From the NCBI GenBank assembly GCA_018398765.1, contig JAHBMJ010004188.1, positions 1-20,329 of the forward strand: a stretch of 20,329 nucleotides of DNA. Reading direction: 5' to 3'. A model generated the notes under the pieces. The model had not been told where the DNA came from, made no database searches, and saw only the letters and a list, made by a program, of their open reading frames with translations. Every line of letters begins with the position of its first letter. The first letter of the stretch is position 1. This document shows, piece by piece, positions 5,742 to 17,403 of this stretch. This DNA comes from Chromera velia (Eukaryota > Sar > Chromeraceae). Position numbers and translations under genes: made by a program.

Positions 5742-6232
5742 CGCAGCAGAAGAAGACGGCCAAGGCCCCCCGCACAGCCAAACAGCAGCAGAAGAAGACG
5801 GCCGGGGCCCCCCGCGCAGCCAAACAGCAGCAGAAGAAGACGGCCAAGGCCCCCCGTACAGCCAAACAGCAGCAGAAGAAGACGGCCGAGGCCCCCCGCG
5901 CAGCCAAACAGCAGCAGGAGAAGACGGCCAAGGCTCCCTGCGCAGCCAAACAGCAGCAGGAGATGACCGCCGAGGCCCCACGCACAGCCAAACAGCAGCA
6001 GGAGAAGACGGCCGAGGCCCCCCGCGCAGCGAAATAGCAGCAGGAGAAGATGGCCGAAGCCCCCCACACAGCCAAACAGCAGCAGGCGAAGACGGCCGAG
6101 GCCCCCCGCACAGCCAAACGGCAGCAGGAGAAGACGGCCGAGGTTCCCTACACAGCTAAACAGCAGCAGGAGAAGACAGCCGAGGCCCCCCACGCAGCCA
6201 AACAGCAGCAGAAGAAGACCAAAGGGGCCCCC
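5742..6232 (+). repeat. 42-bp coding tandem repeat in ORF2, about 12 copies
   Basis: A 42-base unit (GCCAAACAGCAGCAGAAGAA as its first 20 bases) repeats about 12 times with small substitutions and no indels. All three plus frames are largely open: AAEEDGRGPPRSQT, AKQQQKKTAEAPRT and RRRRPRPPAQPNSS. The first is taken as genuine because it joins the zinc-finger frame upstream and the RT frame downstream. The stop at 6157 in that frame is TAA where the sister units have CAA. Confidence 0.9.
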
Positions 6233-7719
6233 CATGCGAGGCCCCGCACAATCGACCACTGAGAGAGAAGAAAAGCGAGGCGAACGCAGGCATACAAGCG
6301 GCCAAGGAGGAGAAGCGCCCCCTGACAAGAGAAGAGGCCGACCGCCTCATGGAGGCAGCCTACGGGGCCCCCAGGGAGCCAGGAGGGAAGCCCCCCCTCG
6401 CTCAGGGAAGGTGGGAGAGAGAGTGGAGGCGTACACAGCATCTATACCCCAGCGGGCAGTACGCATTCCCCAAAAGGAGCACAGGGAGGAGGCTAGTATG
6501 GCTGACACAATCCCTAATTGCAGGGATTAGGAGCGGGGACAACCCAAGTGAAGCGCTCCTGCTGATGCTAGACCTTACCCTCCGGAGGGACCCCCATATC
6601 AAAAAGGCAAAGAAGGTACGGGAGACCATCAAAAGCAGGCTAGATTTGTGAGAGCAGGGGGAGAATACAAGAGAAACCCTCCTTCAGAAGGCAACCAAAA
6701 TTAGCAGGAGAGCCTACAGCAGCAGCAGGAGGGGGGAGAGCGAGAGCCAATTAAAAAGGGAAGAACTTGAGAAGGCAGCGGGCCTCCCCGAGATGAGGAA
6801 ATTTCGAAACTTCATCCAGGTGGGGGAGGTGAGGAGGGGAACACAGATACTGACAGGCCAAGAGAAAGGGGGAGTCCTGGACGGAGAAGATACCTTCACC
6901 AAGAGAGGATAAACCTACCAGGTAGCAGAGACTCTGAAAGCCAAACATCTTCCCGGAAAAACACCCTAAGCAGCAATACTAGAAGCGATGCCTAGAGAGG
7001 GCCTCCCCACCCTCACACCCCTCCTAATCACCGAGGAGGACATCGCCGTAGTAGCACGCCGCCTCCAAGGCAGCGCAAGGCCGTCTGAATTCGATAGCAC
7101 ACAGCTCCGCACCGCAGTCCTGAGCCTAGGGAGGGAGAGTAGAAAGTTAAGGGAAGCACTCGCAAACTTAGCAACAGAAATGGGGAGGAGGGTGTTCGAG
7201 TGGGACCAGGTGAAAGCACTCATGGCATGCCGACTGGTTGTGCTAGACAAATGCCCTGGGATACGCCCGGTAGAAATCGGGGAGGCAATCAGGTGCCTCC
7301 TCGGAAAAGCAGTTATGAAAGAGACTAGAGAGGAACTGCAGGAGGTATGCGGAGCCGATCAGCTGTGCAGTGGCCTCATGGGAGGCCTGGAAGGGGGGAT
7401 TCATGCAGTAAGGGAGCTCTGAGAGACCCTCACATAGGAAGCCGGCAACAACCCCAAGAAGGCATTCGGAACCCTCCTAATAGACACCAAAAACGCTTTC
7501 AACGCAGCAAATCGCACAACGGGGCTGTGGAATGCCCGTATACTCTGGCCTAGAGCCTCCACATTCCTCTTCAACTGCTATAGGGGGGATGCAGAGCTCT
7601 TCCTAAGAGGAACCTACGGGACCACCACCATTAGCAGCAGAGAAGGATGGATGCAAGGGGACCCGATGTCGATGGCAGGGTACGCTATCACCATCCTCCC
7701 CCTCGTCCGAGCTCTCTGA

Positions 7720-8652: not shown

Positions 8653-10184
8653 TAGTATGTGGATGACTCGTCCAATACTGGCTGGTTGTGCCAGCTGCGA
8701 GCATGGCTGCGCGAGTTAGTCAAGAGGGGGCCCGCGGCAGGGTATGTAGTGAAGGTGGACAAGTTGATCCTTGCAGTGCTCCCGAAGTTTCTGCAGAAAG
8801 CCAAAAAGATTTTTACAGAGTTCCCCGACCTGTAGATAGTAGAGGAAACGCGTCTTCTAGGAGGACACGTAGGCATGGACGCACACAGAGAGAAATGGGT
8901 GCAGGAGAAGGTGAAAAAGTGGGCCGGAAGCGTGGAGAGAGTCGCAACAGCAGCAGAATTTGCCCCACATGAAGCATACGCAGCCTGTTCCAAATCCCTG
9001 CAGCACAAATCAAAGTTTGTGGCGAGGGTAGTACCAGGGGTGGGGGGACAGATAGGGCAGCTGGAAGGCACGATCAGAGACCGCCTCATCCCCGCCCTGA
9101 TGAAAGGACGATGGAACGGAGGGCCCCCCACCCAACACGACGTATGACTAAGAGACGTTGCTGCCCTCCCGGTCTGACTGCTAGGCTTAGGCATCCCCAA
9201 ACCCACCAAAACAGCGGACAGGGACTACAAAACCTTAGCTGCAGCCAGTGAAGCGATCATAGAGGCCATCTTTCGAGGAGAGGACATAGACGCAGATGAG
9301 CATGTGAAGAGGGGGCAGAAGGCAAGGGCAGCCCACAAAGAAGCAGTAAAAGAAGCAGTAGAGAAGGAGTGGGAGAGGTTAGGCAGCCAGTCAGGGTAGG
9401 TAGCCAATAAGGACCAGTATGAGGAAGTCAGGCAGTCAAAAGAAAAGAGGCAGTCAGGATGGCTGACGGCCACCCCCCTGAAGGAACACGGAATGAATTC
9501 CGGGATACGATGATAATCCGATATCAGGGGAGGGTAAGGGGGGAGAAGAGCAGATGTGAGGGATGTGGGGGAAGGTGGAGTCTGCAATACGCCCTTAACT
9601 GCCCAGTAGGGGGACTGCCCACGTTGCGACATGACGAAGTTAACCGTACGTGGGCGAGTCTAGCAGCGGAAGCATACCCCGCAGGAGCGGTCCACACAAA
9701 GGAGCCGATCATTAGGGAGGAAGGGGAGGTGCAGGGATGTCCGGCGCTAAGGGGGGACTTCCAAGTCCGGGGGGCCTATGCTCTACAAAGGCTGGCAATT
9801 TTCGATACCAGGGTGATAAACCCACACGCCGCCTCGAGGGAGAAGGTGACCTGGACTCAAGCCCTCAAAGCAGCAGCAGAAGAAAAGAAGAGGAAATATG
9901 GGCAAGCAAGCGCAGACAGAGGGTGTGACTTCACCCCACTCATGAGTGCGGTCGACGGAACGATGGAGGGGGAGGCAAAAATGTTCTTGAAGAGGGTGGC
10001 AGAGCGATTAAGTGAGAAATGGGGGCAATACGTGAGCAAGACGTGCGGCCGGATCCGAGCCCGACTGCAGATTGCCCACCTCAGGCTGAAAGCGGCAAGC
10101 TGCATTCGGGGGACCAGAGGAGTGCAGGGGGAGGGCTGGGAGGAAAGAGGAGTAGGCAGTGCGCTGGTCATGACTGACGGGTAG

Positions 10185-12779: not shown

Positions 12780-13317
12780 ATGATTGTTCCGGTCTTTACC
12801 TTTTCTGAGGTAAGTTGAACCAAATTGTTTATTGAGGGTTTGTGAATGTATAGCACGTCCCAGCATACCGGCCGTTAGTTCGCACGGTATTGGGTATCGT
12901 GCTTAGGCCAGTTTCTTCCTAATCTACCCTAATCTATCCACCCTTAGTTTCTGACTCTGCCTGCCTCTCTATCGCGTTTTTTTCCCTAGTTTCTCTTTTA
13001 CATCAACTTTAATCGCCCCTGCCAGCCCGAAATTGACCTGGAATCACTTAACTCACTTTCAAGTAACGACTTTTTAACAAACAACTCTTCCTGTCCGATT
13101 TTTTTTTTCTCTCTCCAACCCTTTACTTCTTTATGCTTCTCCATCATTCTTCGTCCAGTCAATCAGCTCGGTCTTCACTTCACCCTGTCTTTTACTCGCC
13201 GTTGGCGTCCCCGGCCCCCTGCGTGGGGACAGAGAACGCTGCCACGTCACAAGCCAGTAATGGCTCCGCTTGGAAAGGACCCCTTCTCCCTTTCCATGAG
13301 TAAATGGAAGAAAACAC
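12780..13317. other. left interior of the candidate DNA element, no gene
   Basis: This pyrimidine-rich, non-coding sequence runs up to the nested LTR element. A GTCCCC...GGGGAC inverted repeat lies at 13,207-13,230 and GGAAAGG...CCTTTCC at 13,271-13,294. No coding content seen. Confidence 0.5.
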
Positions 13318-13777
13318 TGCTTTGTCCCTCCTGTCCGGCCACCTTATGGCATCCAGACAGAAGGTAAAGCGAGGATAAGAACCTTAGGGAAGATCTAAAG
13401 AAGGAATGTGAGCAACACTCATTTAGGCAGCAGTTTACAGAAGGTTTAGCTCTAGAGCTATCTGGGATTCCAATCAGCTAGGTTCATTCTATCATTGCAC
13501 AATCTCTACTTATGCTCCCCTCTGTTCCTCTCTCTCAGAGTCTTAGACTCCCGATCTATACCAAACAGACATTAGACTCAAACAATGCTATCCATTGCTC
13601 GAGTGACATATTGCATACTTGAATACGAAGGTCAGACTCGATTTCAACGACTTTGATCGACGCGCGCGACATGTACGAAGCAAAGCGCGGCGGCAGAATG
13701 TGGCGCGGCATGCTGGCTCACTCAGTCATGGCGCATGCGAAGGCTCAAAGGGCGGCGCTACAGGGTAGGACTCCACA
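13318..13777 (-). repeat. LTR of the non-autonomous element, left copy (3' LTR)
   Basis: This 460-bp copy starts TGCTTTGTCCCTCC and ends GGACTCCACA on the plus strand. It aligns without gaps to 15,345-15,804 at a constant offset of 2,027 bases, with 18 substitutions (3.9%), all transitions. If each change is read as C-to-T on one strand, 12 occurred in this copy and 6 in the other. Confidence 0.9.
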
Positions 13778-15344
13778 GATCCCCCCCGGCCACGAACAGG
13801 AAAATCGCGTCCTCGCGATCAACAAATGAAGAGACCGAGCATGAGCTTCAATGCCCAAAGTGGATCTCATCCAAGTCGCCGTAGACATTGTCAGAGCTTC
13901 AAAAACTTTATCTTAATGGCATTTGTGTCAAAATATTCAAGGCGCCACGTATATCAGAACAATCTCAAAGCGCCACGATATGTGAGGCGTGCTCGCAAAT
14001 CTAAGATCACCCAGAGATAGGCACGCGATGCAGATATTGGTGGCACCAATAAAAGCACCTGTTCAGCGCCTGTGTATCTGTCGTTGACCGGAAGACTCGA
14101 TCGGAGTTATGGGTTCCCAGCACCAGCTAGTTCAGGAGCACGGCGGCCAACGTGTGCATCCAACTCGGCGTCATCGAATTGTTAACAGCTGCAAAGGGAT
14201 GTAGACAAAAAAAAAGGGTGCAGCTACACACTGCTCCACTCATGGCTTCCTGAAAGCCTGTTTGCGTGTCGGCCATCCTCGTTCTTACTAAGCTACCATG
14301 CCAAACCAAGTGACTTCAGAACACTCTGTCATGACCTCACTCTTCGAGATGCATTGCTCTAATTTTTCAATCGTTTGCTTCATAAGCAGCTATCACCAGC
14401 TTCAAATCCTTCCACCTTCTCACTGTCAGTTGAGAAGAACGGTGCAACCGGGGTTTACCAACCCATCATAGGGGAACCCGGCCACGCGGTAGTAGTCACA
14501 CACTTGACTTTTCGTACTTCAGGCCTGCCGTTCCCTCAGGGGCATCAAATACATCCAATGCCTTCTGGCTTAACATGAAGATCGAAAGTGCAAGTCTTCT
14601 CAGCTTCTGACGGCGTGTCACTCTGCAGCAGAAAGAACTCTCTCAGCTCTGCTCTTTTGGAGGGAAGTCCCGACGATTTCATGTGCATGTGTACACAATG
14701 GATGGAGTGGTTGTAAGGCCGTGGCACACTCAGCCTCCTGCTAAGCGCCCATACCTTTCGTATCATTTCAATACAAAAGGATTATCGCACAAAGGTGCCA
14801 ACCACCGTGAATAAGTGCACACACCGCCTGACAGAGTCAGACCACATACGGACAGTCGTTCATGTACAGACACGCACGCAGCAAACAGCAGAGTCAACGC
14901 CGGACATGCACACGCCGGTTCCGACCGATCAGGTACAGAACTAGTCATACACTCATAGAACAGCAAGCAAAAGAAGCAATCTACTGGCCGTTTCATTTGT
15001 GATGTACTCGTAGACGGCAATCTCCATGAGACGGAGTCACTCGAAAGTCTAAGTAATACCAACCAACATCTCCACGATCGGTTCCATGCATGCAGAGGTC
15101 TCCGATCCACTTCTCCAATCAGGAACGCCACCCCGAGTTCTCAGTCTACCACGATGATCTCGAAAAGAGGGCTCTGGGCAGCTTGGGACACAAGGGGACG
15201 CTGAATTCCCCTACTCACGGTCTTTGCCTGACCGTGCCTGTATCGTTGCAATCGGCTTTCAACTGTTGCGCAAAAGGAAGATCTGATCTCCATCACAGAA
15301 GGAAAATGAGAGTCGACACTCATCGAGCTGAGCGGTCACCATAA
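13778..15344 (-). other. interior of the non-autonomous LTR element, no coding capacity
   Basis: Minus-strand ORFs of 122 codons (14,763-15,131) and 73 codons (14,545-14,766) are the longest on that strand, and plus-strand ORFs do not exceed 84 codons. None carries retroelement motifs. The interior is therefore probably RNA only, with packaging and priming signals near the right LTR. Confidence 0.6.
15330..15341 (-). other. candidate tRNA primer-binding site of the non-autonomous LTR element
   Basis: The plus strand reads GAGCGGTCACCA, ending in CCA as a tRNA 3' end does, then three bases, then the LTR. The minus strand gives LTR-CA-TTA-TGGTGACCGCTC. The primer tRNA is unknown; a match to a host tRNA gene would confirm it. 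Confidence 0.5.
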
Positions 15345-15804
15345 TGCTTTGTCCCTCCTGTCCGGCCACCTTATGGCGTCCAGACAGAAGGTAAAGCGAG
15401 GATAAGAACCTTAGGGAAGATCTAGAGAAGGAATGTGAACAACACTCATTCAGGTAGCAGTTTACAGAAGGTTTAGCTCTAGAGCTATCTGGGATTCCAA
15501 TCAGCTAGGTTCATTCTATCATTGCACAATCTCTACTTATACTCCCCTCTGTTCCTCTCTCTTAGAGTCTCAGACTCCCGATCTATGCCAAACAGACATC
15601 AGACTTAAACGATGCTATCCATTGCTCGAGTGACATGTTGCATGCTTGAATACGAAGGTCAGACTCGATTTCAACGACTTTGATCGACGCGCGCGACATG
15701 TACGAAGCAAAGCGCGGCGGCGGAATATGGCGCGGCACGCTGGCTCACTCAGTCACGGCGCATGCGAAGGCTCAAAGGGCGGCGCTACAGGGTAGGACTC
15801 CACA
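15345..15804 (-). repeat. LTR of the non-autonomous element, right copy (5' LTR)
   Basis: This copy is the partner of 13,318-13,777. It retains a CpG-rich block around 15,681-15,722 that is nearly identical in the left copy. As the 5' LTR on the minus strand it would carry the promoter, but I see no clear core promoter signal. Confidence 0.9.
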
Positions 15805-16038
15805 GCACGTTTGCTACCACAAATCTCTGCAAGGTGCACAACAGAATTTTGAAGCAAATTGATCAGCAATTGATCAAATTTATCATTGAAACACCTTTAA
15901 AAAAATTTTGTGGCACCTGCGGCACGCAGAAAAAACCGTTTTGACAGTATGTGGGGCTATGTCCCAAATGGGAGGGGGCGCCGCCGTGGAGAGGCCTGGA
16001 GGGAACCGCGGCGTAGCCGCGGTGCTAAAAATGGCCGC
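15805..16038. other. right interior of the candidate DNA element, with an 8-bp-stem hairpin
   Basis: The perfect hairpin ACCGCGGC-GTA-GCCGCGGT lies at 16,005-16,023. Upstream is AT-rich sequence with TTGATCA words (15,859-15,879). No coding content. Confidence 0.5.
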
Positions 16039-16481: not shown

Positions 16482-17403
16482 ATGGAGACGGGAGCAAGCT
16501 CAAAGGACGAGAAGGGAAACGCACAGGCTGAGGAAACCGTTTCCGCCCCTCCCAAAGGACCTCAATGGCCCGGTTTGCCTGAGTACTACGAGATCAAAAA
16601 GATAACTAGCACGAGTACCACTGGTACGCCTTTTGAAACTTTTCTTTTTTTTTCTTGCCCCGACTCTCTCCCGCTCGCTCTCTCCCACTAACCCTCACTG
16701 GCACACCACTCATCCATTCATCACTCACCCGCCCATGCACCCACATCTCTCGCGTCTTTCAGCTCACGTCTCACTTTACTGCAGCTGTTTCTACGTCCAA
16801 CATGCACGCGTCCATTCGTGTATGTATGCGCAGTGAACGTGTACGACAGCCACATGTGCAGAAGCATGATGAGGAGGTATGCGCGTAGGCACGCACGGCG
16901 TGTGGGAGGATTTCTTTGACCCGCAGCGTCCGAAGTAGACGAGAATCCGAAGGACAATTTCACACACATTGATAAAGGAAAGATGAATTTGTGTCGGGCT
17001 CTGCAGGGGCAGTGGCTGAGTGTATTGACGTGAGGAGTGGGAAGACGGTCATTGCGAAGAGGCTGCAGCGTCTTTTCTCTTCAAAGGACGAAGAATGGAG
17101 GGAAGCAGGAACGGACTTAAAAGAGATCGCTCTGCTGAACAAACTGCAGCATCCTGGGGTGATCAGACTGCGTGCCCCCCGACTTGGACAAGTCAGTCAG
17201 ACTGCTCTCCCTCCCTCCCGGCCGGTGCGTGTACATGTACTTGTTTCTCTCTGTCTCCGTCTCCGCCTTTTTGCTTTTGACTAGTTAGCGGTCCAAAATT
17301 CTGTCTAGAAGAGCGTTTGCCCCTTTCTATTCCTCTACCACCTCTCTCCTTTCACGGTGTGTATGGAGAGAGAGAGAGAGAGAGAGAGCCGACTCTCTCT
17401 GTC

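What the first reader, a model, noticed from the sequence alone, without database searches (positions are those of the whole stretch)
13318..15804. LTR pair differs by 18 transitions and nothing else, with a CpA bias: a RIP-like mutation signature outside fungi?
The two LTRs (13,318-13,777 and 15,345-15,804) align over 460 bp without gaps. I count 18 differences: all A/G or C/T, no transversions, no indels. LTRs are identical at insertion, so these are post-insertion mutations. At an ordinary 2:1 transition bias, 18 of 18 has a chance of about 0.0007. Scored as C-to-T on whichever strand carried C, the 3' neighbour is A in 11, G in 5, T in 2 and C in 0. CpA preference is the hallmark of fungal repeat-induced point mutation. 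Plain CpG deamination does not explain it, because a dense CpG block near 13,656-13,708 survives almost intact in both copies. Changes fall on both strands and in both copies. The host does not look fungal. Alternatives are non-CG methylation plus deamination, or an A-to-G editing process on element RNA or cDNA, if the direction is the reverse.
Basis: partly seen in the sequence, partly recalled or inferred. Interest (0 to 1): 0.9.

Follow-up and report, generated by a model that had tools for sequence, protein, structure and literature searches.

The report
Repeats decaying by C-to-T mutation
In the alga Chromera velia, copies of a scattered repeat such as this one mutate almost only from C to T, in a pattern that looks like the footprint of a DNA-methylating enzyme; it resembles the fungal defence called RIP but differs from it in sequence preference.

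Summary
In detail: the two 460-bp LTRs differ at 18 sites, all transitions, no indels. It is a family trait. In 25 LTR pairs from the host, Chromera velia, transitions outnumber transversions 402:26; polarised changes are C>T 329, T>C 29, transversions 20. At all 18 window sites the commonest state in 62 other copies is C or G. Both strands and both LTRs are hit evenly. "CpA = RIP" is only partly right: C>T rates are CpG 50, CpA 35, CpT 18, CpC 14 per 1000 sites, with no 5' effect. That suggests a cytosine methyltransferase plus deamination, not an APOBEC-like deaminase or canonical RIP. A repeat with reverse transcriptase shows the same ranking; local arrays show less transition excess. Against: singletons in the copy alignments lack that ranking. 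The only C5-methyltransferase pieces found are DNMT2-like. Best reading: gradual, methylation-linked C>T decay concentrated on dispersed repeats. A RIP-like mutator or a genome-wide bias is not excluded; methylation data and single-copy controls are missing.

The parts
13318..13777 (+). 5' LTR, 460 bp, TG...CA ends; at 12 of the 18 differences this copy carries the T/A state that is the minority elsewhere
13778..15344 (+). 1567-bp internal region; longest stop-to-stop frame 125 aa, without a Pfam match; 40 genomic matches listed (358 first-look candidates, 40 scored)
15345..15804 (+). 3' LTR, 460 bp; at 6 of the 18 differences this copy carries the minority T/A state
13314..13317 (+). left 4-bp target-site duplication, ACAC; differs from the right one by one A/G transition
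   Evidence: by eye; 4-bp duplications are perfect in 15 of 30 listed neighbouring LTR pairs
15805..15808 (+). right 4-bp target-site duplication, GCAC
   Evidence: by eye
13656..13708 (+). CpG-dense block in the LTR; family-wide its CpGs change about as often as most CpGs elsewhere in the LTR

Best explanation
The feature is a copy of an abundant non-autonomous LTR element of Chromera velia. Its LTRs have diverged after insertion by C>T changes on either strand. The likeliest mechanism is gradual, methylation-linked deamination. A cytosine methyltransferase that reads the target C and its 3' base (preference G > A > T > C, no 5' preference) marks dispersed repeats, and the marked cytosines turn to T far faster than other mutations arise. 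Shown: spectrum, direction, both strands, 3'-only context in LTR pairs, presence in 25 LTR pairs and in a repeat with reverse transcriptase, weaker transition excess in local tandem arrays. Inferred: that the mark is methylation, that it is confined to repeats, that decay is gradual rather than in bursts, and which enzyme does it.
For: LTR pairs: 402 transitions to 26 transversions over 25 pairs and 11,574 sites; polarised C>T 329, T>C 29, transversions 20. The 3' neighbour matters (p = 2e-16); the 5' neighbour does not (p = 0.50). CpA exceeds CpT and CpC, and CpG exceeds CpA, in over 99% of 2000 bootstraps over elements, also when the neighbour is conserved in at least 90% of copies. No CHG excess: CAG 31 against CAA 30, CAC 33, CAT 45 per 1000. 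No strand bias within copies (p = 0.30) and no imbalance between the two LTRs (p = 0.26); transversion share not heterogeneous among pairs (p = 0.13); these fit steady accumulation. Closest internal-region pairs 36:1, 48:1, 71:6. A repeat with a reverse-transcriptase match (RVT_1), L038 against L039: 170:24, ranking G>A>T>C. Local arrays at 85% identity or more, five of them: 106:38, against LTR pairs p = 6e-10. Under the LTR spectrum GC would settle near 8%, while flanks have 48%. An SRA domain (methylcytosine-reader type, recalled) is encoded.
Against: No methylation data. All three C5-methyltransferase loci found look DNMT2-like, a family best known as tRNA methylases. No single-copy DNA could be compared. 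The array control weakens at matched divergence: the two arrays within about 10% give 45:15, not clearly different from the reverse-transcriptase repeat plus one unidentified repeat, 201:34 (p = 0.08), though still from LTR pairs (p = 2e-5). Changes seen in a single copy of the alignments keep the C>T bias but show no CpG or CpA excess; loss of hot sites from singletons by repeated hits predicts this for the LTRs (direction right) but not fully for the inner region. In two other repeat comparisons CpA is level with or above CpG. Four of five near-matching target-site duplications differ by a transition (by eye), so the process may reach beyond the repeat. The ratio (15:1) is far above that reported for wheat TEs (2.8; PMC2996936, passages read), so plain plant-type decay may be too weak.
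Confidence: 0.56

Rival explanations
1. A true RIP-like mutator: a repeat-sensing enzyme system actively converts C to T in duplicated DNA, in bursts or during mitosis, independent of slow spontaneous deamination.
For: Transition share (94%) and C>T share of polarised changes (329 of 378) are closer to the Dim2-dependent mitotic mutation of Zymoseptoria (>95% C>T; PMC8016269, passages read) than to wheat TEs (2.8:1). All four C contexts exceed the T>C rate about 6-fold or more. Transition counts do not track transversion counts (Spearman -0.03).
Against: CpG is the most mutable context in the LTR pairs, whereas RIP and mitotic RIP favour CpA. RIP indices are not in the RIP range. No RID- or Dim2-type gene found. 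No sign of bursts: LTR imbalance, strand imbalance and transversion share are all unremarkable.
Confidence: 0.19
2. A genome-wide mutation bias of Chromera: C>T dominates everywhere and repeats merely make it visible.
For: No single-copy comparison was possible. Four of five near-matching target-site duplications, host DNA in origin, differ by a transition (by eye). Flanks have CpG observed/expected 0.69. The two least diverged local arrays still give 45:15.
Against: Local arrays give a far lower ratio than LTR pairs: five at 85% identity or more 106:38, p = 6e-10; all ten 383:228, of which the L046 array alone is 105:101 and two are below 75% identity. GC of flanks is 48% against an expected 8% at equilibrium.
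Confidence: 0.18
3. A cytidine deaminase (APOBEC-like), or editing of element RNA or cDNA, made the changes.
For: C>T on either strand could come from single-stranded intermediates.
Against: Such deaminases read the 5' base (recalled); here the 5' base has no effect (p = 0.50) and the 3' base a strong one. Within copies both strands are hit evenly. LTR-LTR differences arise after insertion (established knowledge), and a repeat with reverse transcriptase but no known link to this element shows the same ranking.
Confidence: 0.03
4. Assembly artefact in a short-read draft: collapsed or corrected repeats.
For: The published assembly is Velvet k-mer 71 with iterative base correction (PMC4501334, passages read).
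Against: Artefacts would not be expected to make directional C>T changes with a 3'-neighbour rule in 25 LTR pairs; 4-bp target-site duplications support real insertions.
Confidence: 0.03

Closest known systems
Repeat-induced point mutation (RIP) of ascomycetes (RID/Masc1, DIM-2)
   Same: C:G>T:A on both strands of dispersed repeats, few transversions, CpA above CpT and CpC
   Different: CpG is the top context in the LTR pairs, composition indices are not RIP-like, host is an alveolate, no RID- or Dim2-like gene found, timing unknown
Dim2-dependent mitotic C>T mutation in Zymoseptoria tritici (PMC8016269, passages)
   Same: mutations there over 95% C>T and concentrated in methylated repeats
   Different: there over 98% of C>T changes were at CA and CG was little mutated; here CpG exceeds CpA
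5-methylcytosine decay of plant transposons
   Same: CpG plus non-CG cytosines raised, gradual
   Different: wheat TEs show 2.8:1 (PMC2996936, passages) against 15:1 here, and there is no CHG excess here
Non-autonomous LTR elements (TRIM/LARD type, names recalled)
   Same: TG...CA LTRs, short target-site duplications, no coding domain recognised inside
   Different: no primer-binding site or polypurine tract was recognised beside the LTRs by eye

Membership tests
Repeat-induced point mutation | C>T on both strands of repeats with hardly any transversions | tested here: met
   402:26 in 25 pairs; C>T 175 on + and 154 on -
Repeat-induced point mutation | CpA is the preferred context | tested here: not met
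   CpG 50, CpA 35, CpT 18, CpC 14 per 1000 in LTR pairs; CpG/CpA 1.47, 95% interval 1.17-1.89. In two unpolarised repeat comparisons CpA is level with or above CpG
Repeat-induced point mutation | RIP indices in range (TpA/ApT above about 0.89, (CpA+TpG)/(ApC+GpT) below about 1.03; cut-offs recalled) | tested here: not met
   LTRs 0.85 and 1.26; flanks 0.73 and 1.28
Repeat-induced point mutation | confined to duplicated DNA | tested here: inconclusive
   local arrays 106:38 at 85% identity or more, 383:228 over all ten; no single-copy comparison possible
Repeat-induced point mutation | RID/Masc1 or Dim2 methyltransferase | tested here: inconclusive
   PF00145: 4 matches at 3 loci, the pieces read are DNMT2-like; intron-split genes can be missed
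Repeat-induced point mutation | acts in the premeiotic dikaryon | not testable with these tools
   needs crosses or culture
5mC deamination of silenced repeats | CpG most mutable, 3'-neighbour rule, no 5' rule | tested here: met
   LTR pairs; singletons do not show it
5mC deamination of silenced repeats | repeats carry 5mC | not testable with these tools
   no methylation data at hand
5mC deamination of silenced repeats | a DNA C5-methyltransferase other than DNMT2 | tested here: inconclusive
   none found; SRA domain found
LTR retrotransposon (non-autonomous) | TG...CA direct repeats with short target-site duplications | tested here: met
   perfect 4-bp duplications in 15 of 30 neighbouring LTR pairs, one mismatch in 5 more (by eye)
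LTR retrotransposon (non-autonomous) | primer-binding site and polypurine tract | tested here: inconclusive
   none recognised by eye in the 24 bases on each inner side; no tRNA comparison made

The most novel reading that the evidence does not exclude
Chromera velia runs a repeat-directed mutator, an alveolate counterpart of RIP with its own context rule (CpG > CpA > CpT > CpC), in a genome whose only recognisable C5-methyltransferases are DNMT2-like, so that a DNMT2-type or unrecognised enzyme destroys its transposons.
Probability: 0.18. Interest if true: 0.9.

Novelty: new variant of a known kind. Interest (0 to 1): 0.58.

Why it matters
Repeat-directed C>T mutation is called fungus-specific (abstracts of PMC2621366 and PMC7882544, seen in the listing); a 2022 review says it may well have evolved outside fungi (PMC9246332, passages read). 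A near-pure C>T signature with a methyltransferase-like context rule in a photosynthetic relative of apicomplexan parasites makes that testable in a culturable alga. If only DNMT2-type enzymes are present, it also bears on the old question whether DNMT2 ever methylates DNA. It matters practically too: dating C. velia insertions by LTR divergence with a standard clock would probably overestimate their ages.

Tried and rejected
A-to-G editing: rejected by polarity. APOBEC-like or ultraviolet dipyrimidine damage: disfavoured because the 5' base has no effect and both strands are hit evenly per copy. Plant-type CHG methylation: no excess. CpA signal as a by-product of former CpGs: rejected, it persists with conserved neighbours. 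Protected CpG block: rejected.

Results that came out weaker. Rare variants in the LTR alignment: singletons C>T 37, T>C 18, transversions 17, with CpC the highest C>T rate; only variants shared by more copies approach the pair spectrum. Inner-region rare variants: 5.9:1 (singletons, flat over the four contexts), 8.5:1 (up to two copies), 11.3:1 (up to three copies, CpG and CpA about twice CpT and CpC). A star-tree expectation says that hot sites should be under-represented among singletons of many copies; it gives the right direction for the LTRs but does not fully explain the flat inner-region singletons. I relied on LTR pairs because their differences are post-insertion. The array control was first run on seven arrays (252:159), then ten (383:228; two of these are below 75% identity, and L033 is a spaced repeat), then on the five at 85% identity or more (106:38).

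Rows dropped: 6 partial matches of 72; from then on, copies L050_4097, L064_2274 and L064_4476, which removes the pairs L050 (58:26) and L064 (36:10). With them the total would be 496:62. In regions with three LTRs only the first pair was used. In one search, 31 transitions and 1 transversion of mixed polarity and 18 differences with too few informative copies were not polarised.

No match of the element in phages. No psbA, DNMT1-RFD, CDCA7-type zinc finger, NAD1 deaminase, TET/JBP or N4-methyltransferase domain in the genome; for 45, 50, 61 and 70 no control genome rang, so absence is not shown. A protein search with one methyltransferase piece found nothing. Statements that something is not in print rest on searches, which listed no paper on C. 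velia DNA methylation or RIP-like mutation; the lists of 36, 46 and 53 were complete, those of 20, 21, 72 and 73 were capped.

Full report
Check of the observation. The two repeats at 13318-13777 and 15345-15804 align gap-free over 460 bp with 18 differences, all transitions. They start TG and end CA, and are flanked by ACAC and GCAC, a 4-bp target-site duplication with one transition (by eye).

Host and element. The window lies in a 177.8-Mb assembly. All 16 proteins found for an ORF in the window (9423-10184) are Chromera velia CCMP2878 records, so the host is this chromerid alga. Its published assembly is 193.66 Mb in 5953 scaffolds with about 30 Mb of transposable elements (PMC4501334, passages read), so the genome held here is smaller than that. 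The LTR had 42 listed matches (580 first-look candidates, 40 scored), the internal region 40 (358 candidates, 40 scored). I fetched 36 regions; with the window they hold 66 LTR copies long enough to use. Of 30 neighbouring LTR pairs listed, 15 have perfect 4-bp duplications and 5 more have one mismatch (four transitions, one transversion, by eye). So many of these are independent insertions. Their inner parts (about 1.57 kb, or 2.4-2.8 kb in a longer form) hold no stop-to-stop frame over 236 aa; four such frames, one of them the window's, have no Pfam match. They look non-autonomous.

Spectrum. In 25 pairs, one per region, over 11,574 sites, there are 402 transitions and 26 transversions; in the 22 pairs under 5% divergence, 306 and 16. 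I set direction by the state of at least 75% of copies from other regions. Of 378 polarised changes 329 are C>T, 29 T>C and 20 transversions. In the window pair the commonest state elsewhere is C or G at 18 of 18 sites. C>T per thousand sites: CpG 50.2, CpA 34.9, CpT 17.9, CpC 14.3; T>C overall is 2.5. The 3' base matters (p = 2e-16), the 5' base does not (p = 0.50; within CpG and non-CpG sites taken apart, p = 0.38 and 0.29). Bootstrapping over elements keeps the order CpG > CpA > CpT, CpC. There is no CHG excess. The window pair has more CpA than the family would predict (p = 0.03), which is how it came to look like RIP.

Results that pull the other way. Changes found in a single copy of the alignments are still mostly C>T (LTR 37 C>T, 18 T>C, 17 transversions; inner region 172, 41, 36) but show no CpG or CpA excess. 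Part of this is expected, because hot sites are hit in several copies and so drop out of the singletons; a star-tree estimate gives the right direction for the LTRs but not the flat profile of the inner region.

Strands, copies, time. C>T and G>A are even (175 and 154), also within copies (p = 0.30), and the two LTRs of a pair share changes evenly (p = 0.26). The transversion share is not heterogeneous among pairs (p = 0.13). Some columns are hit repeatedly: 24 columns at least four times, 12.8 expected if uniform. All this fits steady accumulation at preferred sites after insertion; it does not exclude repeated small bursts.

Other sequences. Closest pairs of internal regions give 36:1, 48:1 and 71:6. 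Three other repeat comparisons came from the flanks. L038 against L039, a repeat with a reverse-transcriptase match, gives 170:24 with the ranking G>A>T>C. L038 against L041, not identified, gives 31:10 with A>G>T>C. L048 against L063, which by eye of the frames is the long inner part of this family, gives 179:36 with A and G level. Ten local repeats, mostly tandem arrays, give 383:228 with a weaker CpA effect (1.5-fold over CpT and CpC, against 2.4-fold in the dispersed repeats; odds ratios). Much of that low ratio comes from diverged arrays and from L046 (105:101). The five at 85% identity or more give 106:38, still well below the LTR pairs (p = 6e-10) and below L038/L039 plus L038/L041 (201:34, p = 0.005); the two within about 10% give 45:15, not clearly below 201:34 (p = 0.08) but below the LTR pairs (p = 2e-5). 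The LTR spectrum implies an equilibrium GC near 8% while the 122,561 unmasked flanking bases have 48%, so the bulk of the genome cannot long have been under it without strong opposing forces. These controls are indirect: no single-copy sequence could be compared.

Enzymes. PF00145 found four matches at three loci. The pieces I could read match DNMT2 or tRNA C38 methyltransferases best among solved structures: 3.9e-28 and 5.1e-22, and weakly, 0.01, for the third. An SRA domain is encoded at C2797. So either a DNA methyltransferase is missed (intron-split, or in sequence not held), or a DNMT2-type enzyme acts on DNA, or the mark is something else.

Comparison. RIP is C>T in repeats with CpA preference (PMC12543289, passages read). 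Mitotic C>T mutation in Zymoseptoria depends on Dim2, with over 98% of C>T changes at CA and few at CG although CG is more methylated (PMC8016269, passages read). Wheat TEs show 2.8:1 against 1.9:1 in introns and untranslated regions (PMC2996936, passages read). C. velia shares the near-purity of the fungal process and the CpG-first ranking of ordinary methylcytosine decay. The order CpG > CpA > CpT > CpC recalls the preference of mammalian DNMT3 enzymes (recalled, not tested).

Verdict. It works like methylation-linked C>T decay of dispersed repeats. It is not a member of RIP as defined by CpA preference and indices, though it may be a functional analogue. It is a new variant of a known kind, and worth testing because no report on C. 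velia DNA methylation turned up in the searches (four of these lists were capped).

Noticed in passing
L035:2110-3047 (G000:C818): Two LTRs of this family separated by only 18 bp, which by eye join the start of the internal region to its end, with a perfect 4-bp target-site duplication: a nearly empty element that still looks like a normal insertion.
   Followed up: no
L031, L040, L041, L042 against the window element: The same LTR family flanks two different inner parts, about 1.57 kb and 2.4-2.8 kb, alike only near their ends; no autonomous partner was seen in the regions fetched.
   Followed up: partly
L057 (and the start of L036): Head-to-tail arrangement in which neighbouring elements share an LTR: three LTRs and two inner parts in a row in L057; in L036 the end of another inner part abuts the first LTR.
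   Followed up: no
window 13778-13801 and 15321-15344: No TGG-type primer-binding site after the 5' LTR and no purine tract before the 3' LTR (by eye), unusual for an LTR retrotransposon.
   Followed up: no
window 5743-6220: Tandem repeats with a 42-bp step, open in several frames.
   Followed up: no
window 6970-7422 and 9423-10184: ORF fragments that by eye look like a decayed LINE; relatives of the second are named only as uncharacterized C. velia proteins.
   Followed up: partly
window 16976-17284: Exon-like ORF with a weak match to the protein kinase domain, below Pfam's cut-off.
   Followed up: partly
G000:C2797:69898-70705: SRA (SAD_SRA) domain in two matched stretches, although only DNMT2-like cytosine methyltransferases were found.
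   Followed up: partly
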